Assembly: GCA_944381405.1 (NCBI GenBank)
Contig: CALWLA010000019.1
Coordinates: 1 to 46,699 of the forward strand
Direction of reading: 5' to 3'
DNA from: an uncultured Lachnospiraceae bacterium
Lineage (GTDB): Bacteria > Bacillota > Clostridia > Lachnospirales > Lachnospiraceae
DNA length: 46,699 nucleotides
Shown here: positions 246-6,104 of the stretch, piece after piece
How positions within the stretch are numbered: position 1 is the first letter of the stretch
How the letters are laid out: each line of letters starts with the position of its first letter
Made by a program: the position numbers and the translations under genes
Notes under the pieces: model-generated
Seen by the model: only the letters and a program-made list of their open reading frames with translations
Database searches by the model: none
What the model was told of the DNA's origin: nothing

Positions 246-335
246 ATGGTTACTTACTCGGATTTGATCCAGATCGGTATCTTTATCGTAGCCCTTGTAG
301 GTCTCATTTACGAGATCGTCAAGGATAGAAAATAG
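246..335 (+). CDS. Putative holin-like toxin (type I toxin-antitoxin family), 29 aa
   Basis: A 29-codon frame starts at ATG 246, 7 nt after a strong AAAGGAGGG ribosome site, and ends with TAG at 333-335. The product starts MVTYSDLIQIG, continues with a single hydrophobic helix (about residues 8-23, with IFIVALVGLIYEIV), and ends in a charged tail (KDRK). This matches the Hol-Tox type of tiny membrane toxin common in Firmicutes, usually paired with an antisense RNA rather than a protein antitoxin. It would insert in the cell membrane. A convergent promoter and hairpin for such an RNA are visible immediately downstream. The family call is from memory of the typical N-terminus; an antimicrobial-like or regulatory membrane peptide is the alternative. 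Confidence 0.72.
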   Translation: MVTYSDLIQIGIFIVALVGLIYEIVKDRK

Positions 336-483: not shown

Positions 484-723
484 TTACTGGTGGGCGGCTG
501 CCAGGTATTCTTTGATTATATCCATAATCGCAGAGGCGCATCACGTCCCTGCCGGATTGAGCTCCTTGCACCGGTCGAGGGTACAGGCACCGGTCATGCT
601 TTTGATATCGTCGAGAGTCCTTGCGCCCTGATTGAGCGCTACGAGGATATCGCTCCGGGTAACGGAGGAACACCAGCAGACCATTTCGGCGGGGCCCATC
701 TGTTTTTTATTTTCATCGTTCAT
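484..723 (-). CDS. BFD-like [2Fe-2S] ferredoxin-domain protein, candidate selenoprotein with UGA-encoded Sec61
   Basis: The ATG at 723 is preceded by an AGAAGG ribosome site and promoter 790-818. The frame reaches TGA at 543-541 after 60 codons, yet continues in the same frame for 18 more codons to TAA at 486-484, giving a sensible C-terminus (CASAIMDIIKEYLAAAHQ). Cys16-x-Cys18 and Cys47-x4-Cys52 are the cluster-ligand pattern of BFD/[2Fe-2S] small proteins, and the family usually carries a Cys-Cys pair right after the CKELNP segment. Here the UGA sits at the first of those two positions, followed by TGC (Cys62). A hairpin 11 nt after the UGA with a GG-starting loop fits a bacterial SECIS. 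Best reading: a 79-aa protein with a Sec-Cys dyad, probably electron transfer or redox sensing. Alternative: nonsense mutation giving a 60-aa truncated protein. No sel genes lie in this window. Confidence 0.65.
509..543 (-). promoter_or_regulatory. SECIS-like element after the in-frame UGA
   Basis: On the minus strand: UGA (543-541), an 11-nt gap (540-530), stem GATTAT (529-524), loop GGAT (523-520), stem ATAATC (519-514). Below a 2x2 internal loop, TCT (534-532) pairs with AGA (511-509). The 11-nt spacing equals that of the fdhF element of E. coli, and the loop starts with G as bacterial SECIS rules require (UGA-to-loop 17 nt, stem 6 bp). The pattern fit is seen; function is inferred. Confidence 0.55.
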
Positions 724-739
724 AATCAGAACCTTCTTT

Positions 740-4502: not shown

Positions 4503-5690
4503 ATGAAGCTTTTAAAAATACGGGCTTCAGGAATTCCTTTGTTTAAAGATATATGTGAGATTGATTATATAGCTCGTCAAAGAGTAACTGCAGATGATGC
4601 GGAAGCTATGGGTACAGTGTTTACCGCCGGAATGCAGGCATTTGTACAGAATAATGTTCTTGCCATGATCGGTATCAACGCATCTGGAAAAACAACCGTA
4701 TTGAAATTGATAACCTTTGTCTGCAGGATGTTGAACAATGAACCGCTTAATCGTATTGACTGCGCAGAAGTTTTTGACGGCTTGGCAGAGAATCAGTATG
4801 CCACACTCGAAACATATTTTCTTGCGAACAGCAATGCACCTTGCCATCAGATTGACGGAAAGGCAATTAACCAGCTTAAAACGGTGATAGGAAGGAAAGA
4901 TGATAAGCTGCTGATCCTTCAGGAAACGCTCAGGACAAAAGCGATTGCCAAAGATCTCCGAAAAAAAACACTTTTTGATTTTGAAGGCGCAGAGACCAGT
5001 CTGTCCCGCCAGTTCAACGAATTTTTGTTGGACGATGTCAGTATTATGGTGGCATTTAATAAAAAGAACAAAGAGCAGGTTGTTATCGCAGATATGCTGC
5101 GGTATACGAATATCAATCAACTGCGTTTGTCGGAAGACTGCCCGTTTGAACTGATCGCTTTTTTTGATCCAAGTATTGAATATCTCAGATTAGAAAAAAA
5201 TAGTAAGGATGTCCGTATTCATCTAAAGTTCAGGGGGAAAAGGGAGATTATTCTGAATCAGTTTTCTGACCTGAACAGATATCTTTCATCCGGTACGATA
5301 AAGGGAATTAACACGTTTTTGAAGGCGATGCACGTATTCGAGGCGGGAGGATATCTGATTATTGATGAATTAGAAAATCACTTTAATCGAGAAATTGTAT
5401 CGACACTGATCCGGCTCTTTATGGATAAAAAAGTAAACAAGACCGGTGCGATGCTGATTTTTTCTACCCATTATCCAGAACTTCTTGATGAATTCAAGCG
5501 AAACGACAACATTTATATTGTGAGAAACAGGCAGGGGATTTCCGTTGAAAACCTTTCACTGATCCTTAAGCGAAATGATATAAAAAAGAGCGAAGCTTAT
5601 CAAAGCGGTTATCTGGAAGGAACCGTGCCTATGTATGAAGCTTACATGGATCTGAAAAGGGCCCTCATAAAAGCGTATAAGGAGGGCTGA
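4503..5690 (+). CDS. AAA family ATPase (AAA_15/OLD-like), candidate defence ATPase
   Basis: 395 residues. Walker A GINASGKTT (57-65), signature-like LSSGTIKG (261-268), Walker B YLIIDELE (284-291; Asp288, Glu289) and a STHYPELL switch with His323. The long insert between Walker A and the signature, and the recombination-ATPase style GINASGKT, fit the AAA_15/OLD/RloC group used in two-gene phage-defence modules such as AbiL and PARIS. The frame is AT-rich compared with its neighbours, suggesting recent transfer. It is followed after 3 nt by a small CEG-motif protein, so the two are co-translated and likely form a complex. Which defence type it is, or whether it is defence at all, cannot be settled by reading. 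Confidence 0.75.
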   Translation: MKLLKIRASGIPLFKDICEIDYIARQRVTADDAEAMGTVFTAGMQAFVQNNVLAMIGINASGKTTVLKLITFVCRMLNNEPLNRIDCAEVFDGLAENQYATLETYFLANSNAPCHQIDGKAINQLKTVIGRKDDKLLILQETLRTKAIAKDLRKKTLFDFEGAETSLSRQFNEFLLDDVSIMVAFNKKNKEQVVIADMLRYTNINQLRLSEDCPFELIAFFDPSIEYLRLEKNSKDVRIHLKFRGKREIILNQFSDLNRYLSSGTIKGINTFLKAMHVFEAGGYLIIDELENHFNREIVSTLIRLFMDKKVNKTGAMLIFSTHYPELLDEFKRNDNIYIVRNRQGISVENLSLILKRNDIKKSEAYQSGYLEGTVPMYEAYMDLKRALIKAYKEG

Positions 5691-5693
5691 GGC

Positions 5694-6104
5694 ATGGAAC
5701 TTTCCAAGTATGTTGCCTGCATTTGTGAAGGAACGGCAGAAGAAGTTATAATGGAAATCCTTCTGGATAACGATAGACTTATCTTTGACCGCAGCCAGCT
5801 ACTTGAAGAAACGTTGATCAGATGTCGGGACGCAAAGAAATTTGGTGTGATCAATGTCATTACGGCGCCTGAAATCGAAATGCTGGTGATCTTTGCTGAA
5901 AAGAAGTATGCGGCGTTTAAAAATTCCAGAAAACGGCCCAGCGATTTCTGTACGCAGGATTTGGGCTTGGGCAATGTTAAAAGCAGAGATTTTGTTCAGC
6001 AATATTTTCAAGACGTAGATTTATTGATTGCTGCGATCAAAGAGTATAAGCGGATATCTCATAGGGCCAAGGGGGAATACGCTTTGGCAAATTTATTAAA
6101 ATGA
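5694..6104 (+). CDS. Small TOPRIM-like partner protein of the AAA ATPase
   Basis: 136 residues. The N-terminus contains ICEGTAEE (10-17), like the first acidic motif of TOPRIM nucleases of RloB/AbiLii/OLD type, and a second conserved-looking segment NVITAPEIEML (54-64). No clear DxD pair of a complete TOPRIM is present between them: only about 36 residues separate the motifs. As I recall, related proteins are longer there, so this copy may have an in-frame deletion of the middle of the domain; that is inference. It starts 3 nt after the ATPase stop with an AAGGAGGGCTGAGGC ribosome region. Probable role: the effector or regulator half of a defence pair. Confidence 0.5.
   Translation: MELSKYVACICEGTAEEVIMEILLDNDRLIFDRSQLLEETLIRCRDAKKFGVINVITAPEIEMLVIFAEKKYAAFKNSRKRPSDFCTQDLGLGNVKSRDFVQQYFQDVDLLIAAIKEYKRISHRAKGEYALANLLK

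What the first reader, a model, noticed from the sequence alone, without database searches (positions are those of the whole stretch)
484..723. Candidate selenoprotein: BFD-like ferredoxin with Sec-Cys in place of the family Cys-Cys
The frame crosses a UGA at 543-541 and continues to TAA at 486 with a credible C-terminus. The UGA stands exactly where relatives, as I recall them, have a cysteine (the pair after CKELNP). A hairpin 11 nt after the UGA, with 6-bp stem and GGAU loop, satisfies bacterial SECIS geometry. A tiny [2Fe-2S] protein with a redox Sec-Cys dyad would be an unusual and perhaps undescribed selenoprotein family.
Basis: partly seen in the sequence, partly recalled or inferred. 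Interest (0 to 1): 0.87.

Follow-up and report, generated by a model that had tools for sequence, protein, structure and literature searches.

The report
Small selenium-containing iron-sulfur protein gene
A tiny iron-sulfur protein gene in this bacterium very probably reads an internal stop codon as selenocysteine, which makes it a further member of a selenoprotein family that reviews already list; I found no tested function for it.

Summary
Minus strand 723-484 encodes a 79-residue BFD-type [2Fe-2S] protein with one in-frame UGA (543-541) before Cys62 and homologous sequence after it. Eighteen close standalone relatives carry Cys (11) or TGA (7) at that site. The genome holds selA, selB, tRNA-Sec and a selD that itself carries a TGA at its expected selenocysteine site. 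The hairpin has bacterial SECIS geometry, and one TGA relative (L105) keeps it almost letter for letter; alone it is no stronger than shuffles.

The claim of an undescribed family fails: two reviews list a CopZ-family (2Fe-2S) selenoprotein "form 1" with motif GxUC; the window has GTUC. I could not compare it with the listed accession.

Beyond the finding: six invariant Cys/Sec positions, one more than CopZ-type domains; SelA in 10 of 11 genomes with Cys-type copies against 51 of 291 in the class; two TGA copies in prophage lysogeny regions; some copies beside ArsP permease or phosphatase/arsenate-reductase-like genes. Best guess: a selenol/thiol pair next to a [2Fe-2S] cluster doing redox or soft-metal chemistry.

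The parts
484..723 (-). CDS of the 79-residue BFD-type [2Fe-2S] selenoprotein (TAA at 486-484)
   Evidence: Translation with TGA read as U; Fer2_BFD E 9.9e-7; relatives
541..543 (-). In-frame UGA, predicted selenocysteine codon 61
   Evidence: 18 close standalone relatives: 11 Cys, 7 TGA at this codon
514..529 (-). Predicted SECIS upper hairpin: 6-bp stem, GGAU loop (loop 523-520)
   Evidence: nearly identical in TGA relative L105; not stronger than shuffles alone
497..539 (-). Wider predicted stem-loop holding the upper hairpin, -9.3 kcal/mol
   Evidence: RNA fold of 546-496; z-score only -0.43
732..738 (-). Shine-Dalgarno-like AAGAAGG, 8 nt before the ATG
   Evidence: Sequence read directly

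Best explanation
The gene encodes a standalone BFD-type [2Fe-2S] protein whose codon 61 (UGA) is read as selenocysteine by the genome's own SelA/SelB/tRNA-Sec/SelD system with a hairpin just after the UGA as SECIS (about 0.95). It belongs with the listed CopZ-family selenoprotein form 1, motif GxUC (about 0.85). How it most likely works (inferred, about 0.4): the BFD fold binds one [2Fe-2S] cluster with four of the six invariant Cys/Sec positions (16, 18, 47, 52, 61, 62). The other two, probably Sec61 together with Cys47 or Cys62, form a redox-active selenol/thiol pair beside the cluster. The cluster would feed electrons to that pair, which would reduce or hold a soft metal, metalloid or thiol-bound substrate. 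The sequence shows the Cys pattern and the UGA; the cluster, the pair and the substrate are not shown.
For: Frame and family. In the two collection scans, whose patterns leave out the pair, all 19 confirmed loci (16, 3) have Cys or TGA at the site. selA 477 bits, selB 356 bits, tRNA-Sec 60 bits side by side on contig C1; selD 372 bits with one TGA, located at GECGG*ASK. Hairpin within published limits for loop, stem and spacing (section read). Hairpin energies of 8 TGA genes are lower than those of 11 Cys genes, Mann-Whitney p 0.00045. Window and L105: third codon positions 9 of 13 identical after the UGA, 12 of 34 before it. AlphaFold model pLDDT 87.4; Foldseek hits Bfd 6e6s (prob 1.00, TM by target 0.78) and CopZ N-domain 2hu9 (prob 1.00). 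Neighbours such as ArsP_1, thioredoxins, DGC and LMWPc in some relatives.
Against: The window hairpin is not stronger than shuffles, and the bare 39-nt stretch folds at -5.2, above the -7.5 kcal/mol limit of the published model; only with the lower stem is it met (-9.3). Foldseek E-values are all above 0.001. The metal and arsenic neighbours were found in a minority of loci; the window gene has no informative neighbour and ends 483 bases from its contig end. The one other TGA host without SelA (L088) is a 1.5-Mb assembly. No expression or mass data.
Confidence: 0.87

Rival explanations
1. The UGA is a true stop: the gene makes a 60-residue BFD protein that ends at AGT, or it is a pseudogene or an assembly error of a Cys codon.
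For: The truncated form would keep CxC and Cys47/Cys52. Other small BFD proteins without the pair exist (L112-L114). The window's hairpin is not exceptional against shuffles.
Against: The same codon is TGA in 7 of 18 close relatives, including two prophage copies and hosts of Bacillota and Thermodesulfobacteriota (origins); homology continues after the UGA; the genome has the Sec machinery; third positions after the UGA are conserved towards L105.
Confidence: 0.04
2. It is a Bfd-like electron carrier for bacterioferritin or a similar partner, and the Sec-Cys pair only tunes or ligates the cluster.
For: Solved-structure matches include Bfd. The aligned CopZ N-domain stretch has only Cys 75, 77, 109, 118 and 119, so one of the pair may be a ligand there.
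Against: The Bfd sequence alignments end before the pair. All six Cys/Sec positions are invariant in the 15-row alignment, two more than a four-ligand cluster needs. No bacterioferritin gene was sought.
Confidence: 0.25
3. It is a selenium-handling accessory protein, tied to the Sec machinery even when it has Cys.
For: SelA over the Pfam cut-off in 10 of 11 genomes with a Cys-type standalone copy, against 51 of 291 in the window's class (Fisher p 5.6e-7) and 15 of 35 genomes with more distant BFD genes (p 0.0055; tests).
Against: One of the ten (L082) has SelA only in pieces; with a 300-bit bar it is 9 of 11, 47 of 291 and 14 of 35, p 6.0e-6 and 0.018. G791, 98% complete, has the Cys copy and no SelA. 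Within the genus only 2 of 6 genomes with full-length SelA have the gene. I saw no sel gene among the neighbours in the ORF list, by eye only. Hosts come from several phyla while the background is one class, many are incomplete, and the tests ignore kinship.
Confidence: 0.2

Closest known systems
(2Fe-2S)-binding protein, CopZ family, selenoprotein form 1 (cd10141, GxUC; PMC13188914, PMC9312934)
   Same: BFD-type domain; Sec followed by Cys; motif GxUC (window GTUC)
   Different: Not known: its listed sequence could not be fetched, so length, Cys pattern and neighbours were not compared
Csac_0668 family CopZ_Nterm_CU (NCBIfam NF045877), form 2 with CU motif
   Same: Its C-terminal part (96-160 of 161) matches residues 10-74 of the window protein, E 2.4e-13
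   Different: Score 50.3 against a cut-off of 190; longer at the N-terminus; motif CU in the review table; CopZ-type rows have no Cys at the Cys47 column (31 of 31 rows with a C-C pair, 29 distinct places)
Bacterioferritin-associated ferredoxin Bfd (6e6s, 4e6k)
   Same: Fold and CxC start
   Different: Sequence alignment ends before the pair
Archaeoglobus CopZ N-terminal domain (2hu9)
   Same: BFD fold with CxC, a later Cys and a C-C pair
   Different: Longer at the N-terminus; Cys instead of Sec; no Cys at the Cys47 site

Membership tests
Bacterial selenoprotein | In-frame UGA aligned with Cys of relatives | tested here: met
   11 Cys and 7 TGA of 18 close standalone relatives
Bacterial selenoprotein | Sec machinery in the genome | tested here: met
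   selA, selB, tRNA-Sec, selD
Bacterial selenoprotein | SECIS hairpin after the UGA | tested here: inconclusive
   Geometry met, conserved towards L105, but energy not better than shuffles
Bacterial selenoprotein | Selenium in the protein | not testable with these tools
   Needs 75Se or mass spectrometry
CopZ-family selenoprotein form 1 | BFD-type domain with GxUC motif | tested here: met
   against table rows seen; cd10141 itself was not searched, Pfam Fer2_BFD was
CopZ-family selenoprotein form 1 | Similarity to the listed accession WP_245779778.1 | not tested
   Sequence not available here
Csac_0668 family (form 2) | Score above the NCBIfam cut-off over the whole model | tested here: not met
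   50.3 bits against 190; only positions 96-160 of 161
Bfd | Bfd fold | tested here: met
   Foldseek prob 1.00 but E 0.011
Bfd | Electron transfer to bacterioferritin | not testable with these tools
   Needs an assay; no partner gene was sought

The most novel reading that the evidence does not exclude
The standalone six-Cys/Sec BFD proteins form a subfamily distinct from CopZ: a [2Fe-2S] cluster next to a Sec/Cys redox pair, a minimal counterpart in principle of ferredoxin-thioredoxin reductase, that serves selenium-dependent handling of soft metals or metalloids, goes with the Sec machinery even in its Cys form, and is carried between hosts partly by prophages.
Probability: 0.22. Interest if true: 0.62.

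Novelty: new member of a known kind. Interest (0 to 1): 0.38.

Why it matters
A 79-residue protein with a cluster and a possible Sec/Cys pair would be a very small system in which to study how selenium and an Fe-S cluster work together. Mechanical gene calling ends the gene at the UGA (60 residues), so copies are easily missed. Prophage-borne copies would show a selenoprotein gene travelling with phages, useful only in hosts that decode Sec.

Tried and rejected
A single-sequence scan of genome contigs found no relative; the three-row alignment did. The plasmid search gave two distant hits (37.1% and 35.7% identity), one annotated Csac_0668 family. The phage-record search with the L106 product gave no match. 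The GOS paper that both reviews cite for forms 1 and 2 (PMC2398784) holds none of CopZ, 2Fe-2S, copper chaperone, BFD or Fer2 in its main text, and PMC5029168 holds none of CopZ, 2Fe-2S, copper, ferredoxin or novel selenoprotein, so I could not trace the first description. PMC12013261, PMC1976440 and PMC9879109 are not held. PMC4510573 (passages) annotates Csac_0668 as a (2Fe-2S)-binding protein and does not use the words selenoprotein or selenocysteine. PMC5322559 mentions CopZ once, in comparison only. The other paper searches were seen as listings only. The tree of 19 rows has no well supported branch (0 of 16 starred), so the 3 Cys/Sec changes it shows are weak.

The distant BFD genes are also outside the 18: re-aligned on the right strand they are CopZ-type (31 rows, all C-C, no TGA) or of other BFD types without this pair. 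Four more small ones were fetched: L111 is CopZ-like with C-C, L112, L113 and both frames of L114 lack the pair. In one search the minus-strand loci were printed in the wrong frame; one search replaces those rows.

Full report
What is there. On the minus strand an ATG at 723, preceded by AAGAAGG 8 nt upstream, opens a frame that meets one UGA at 543-541 and ends with TAA at 486-484. Read with UGA as selenocysteine the product has 79 residues and ends GTUCASAIMDIIKEYLAAAHQ. Pfam gives Fer2_BFD at E 9.9e-7 over residues 14-72, across the UGA. Mechanical ORF calling gives only 60 residues.

Relatives. A search of 195 related genomes gave, besides many distant BFD genes, two close standalone genes (51-52% identity); both have C-C where the window has UGA-Cys. 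A genome-contig scan with patterns that do not include the pair returned 16 loci: 14 standalone and 2 CopZ-type (L093, L094, both C-C). Of the 14, four have TGA at the site (L081 Peptacetobacter, L088 Geobacter, L091 Desulfobacteraceae, L092 Desulfatibacillaceae) and ten have Cys. Three more with TGA came from IMG/VR (L105-L107) and one more with Cys from the window's order (L096 in G791). Total: 18 close standalone relatives, 11 Cys, 7 TGA, no other codon. More distant BFD genes are either CopZ-type, 31 rows all with C-C and none with TGA, or other types without this pair; small BFD proteins without the pair also exist.

Machinery. The window's genome has full-length selA, selB and tRNA-Sec above the gathering score within 3.5 kb of contig C1, and selD 11 kb away with one in-frame TGA at GECGG*ASK, where from recall SelD has its catalytic Cys or Sec. 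So this genome very probably decodes UGA as Sec in another gene. In the genomes of the other TGA loci that could be searched (L081, L088, L091, L092): SelA in 3 of 4, SelD above cut-off in 4 of 4, tRNA-Sec above cut-off in 3 of 4; the miss is the 1.5-Mb L088 genome. The hosts of L105-L107 were not tested.

SECIS. The review model (section read) asks for a 3-9 nt loop, a 4-16 bp stem, G in the first two loop positions, 16-37 nt spacing and -7.5 kcal/mol or lower. The window has a 4-nt GGAU loop, 6 bp and 17 nt. Energy is -9.3 with the lower stem and -5.2 without; neither stands out from shuffles. My script found a conforming upper hairpin in 8 of 8 TGA genes and, by this loose rule, in 7 of 11 Cys genes; energies run from -1.5 to -11.2 and from +1.5 to -2.6, Mann-Whitney p 0.00045 with absent hairpins set to +5. 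Shuffles that did as well: 4, 10, 35, 9, 31, 16, 42 and 63 of 300 for L081, L088, L091, L092, L105, L106, L107 and the window. L105 has the same stem letters with loop AGGU; third codon positions match in 9 of 13 codons after the UGA against 12 of 34 before.

Fold and cysteines. An AlphaFold model from 15 rows has pLDDT 87.4 and pTM 0.74; the pair lies just before the last helix, residues 63-77. Foldseek gives Bfd 6e6s and the CopZ N-domain 2hu9, both at probability 1.00 with E 0.011 and 0.065. Positions 16, 18, 47, 52, 61 and 62 are invariant in the 15-row alignment, with Sec read as Cys. In the aligned stretch of 2hu9 the Cys are 75, 77, 109, 118 and 119, so the CopZ domain lacks the equivalent of Cys47, as do all 31 CopZ-type rows. 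If its cluster has four Cys ligands from this stretch, one of the C-C pair must be a ligand. I did not read the ligands. By inference the window protein has two Cys/Sec positions beyond the four ligands, which could form a redox pair.

Neighbourhoods. The window gene stands alone near the contig start, divergent from a GntR/ABC transporter set. Ten chosen neighbours of five relatives were scanned: L088 has ArsP_1, a small and an ordinary thioredoxin and DsbD_TM; L091 a DGC protein; L092 two LMWPc proteins (a family that, from recall, includes arsenate reductases); L090 an ArsP_1 and a protein with a weak, below-cut-off thioredoxin match; L083 an HGD-D protein. This is no count over the whole set; L080, L084, L087 and L089 showed no such neighbours by eye in the ORF list. 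L106 and L107 lie between phage repressor genes and metalloprotease or endonuclease genes, with integrase matches nearby: prophage lysogeny regions, both under IMG genome number 2775507286 by their names.

Link to selenium. SelA passes the Pfam cut-off in 10 of the 11 genomes with Cys-type standalone copies (ten; G791 without), against 51 of 291 genomes in the window's class (the window's genome is one of them) and 15 of 35 genomes with a more distant BFD gene; Fisher p 5.6e-7 and 0.0055. With a 300-bit bar the counts are 9 of 11, 47 of 291 and 14 of 35, p 6.0e-6 and 0.018. Against a functional link: tRNA-Sec reached the cut-off in only 7 and SelD in only 9 of the 11, G791 lacks SelA, and in the genus 6 of 25 genomes have full-length SelA but only two of them the gene. 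Kinship and shared anaerobic life may explain it.

Known or new. PMC9312934 and PMC13188914 (table passages seen) list a CopZ-family (2Fe-2S)-binding selenoprotein in form 1 (GxUC) and form 2 (CU, Csac_0668). The window has G-T-U-C. It therefore counts as a new member of a listed family. My searches (listings; passages) showed no tested function for it, no six-Cys pattern, no prophage copies and no SelA link of the Cys forms; most papers were not opened, and subscription papers are mostly not held.

Noticed in passing
window 246-335 (+): 29-residue holin-like toxin peptide (Pfam Hol_Tox, E 1.7e-7) beyond the end of the selenoprotein gene, on the other strand; possible type I toxin.
   Followed up: partly
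L106 (match 5001-5186) and L107 (match 5001-5180): Two related copies of this selenoprotein gene with TGA lie in two prophage-type contigs that carry the same IMG genome number, near repressor, metalloprotease and integrase genes.
   Followed up: partly
L081 2051-4858 and 6467-7591: The Peptacetobacter TGA copy lies just after an AAA_5 ATPase and an McrBC-family gene (restriction-type pair) and before a phage-type integrase.
   Followed up: no
L110 7320-8243 (G000 C1:53320-54243): selD of the window's genome carries a TGA at the expected selenocysteine site; 13 of the 14 selD genes above the cut-off carry one TGA.
   Followed up: yes
window 4503-6104 (+): AAA_21 (AbiEii-like) ATPase followed by a 136-residue protein without Pfam match; looks like a two-gene defence-type pair.
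   Followed up: no
genus of G000 (25 genomes): Full-length SelA is patchy within the genus, 6 of 25 genomes, several of them incomplete.
   Followed up: no
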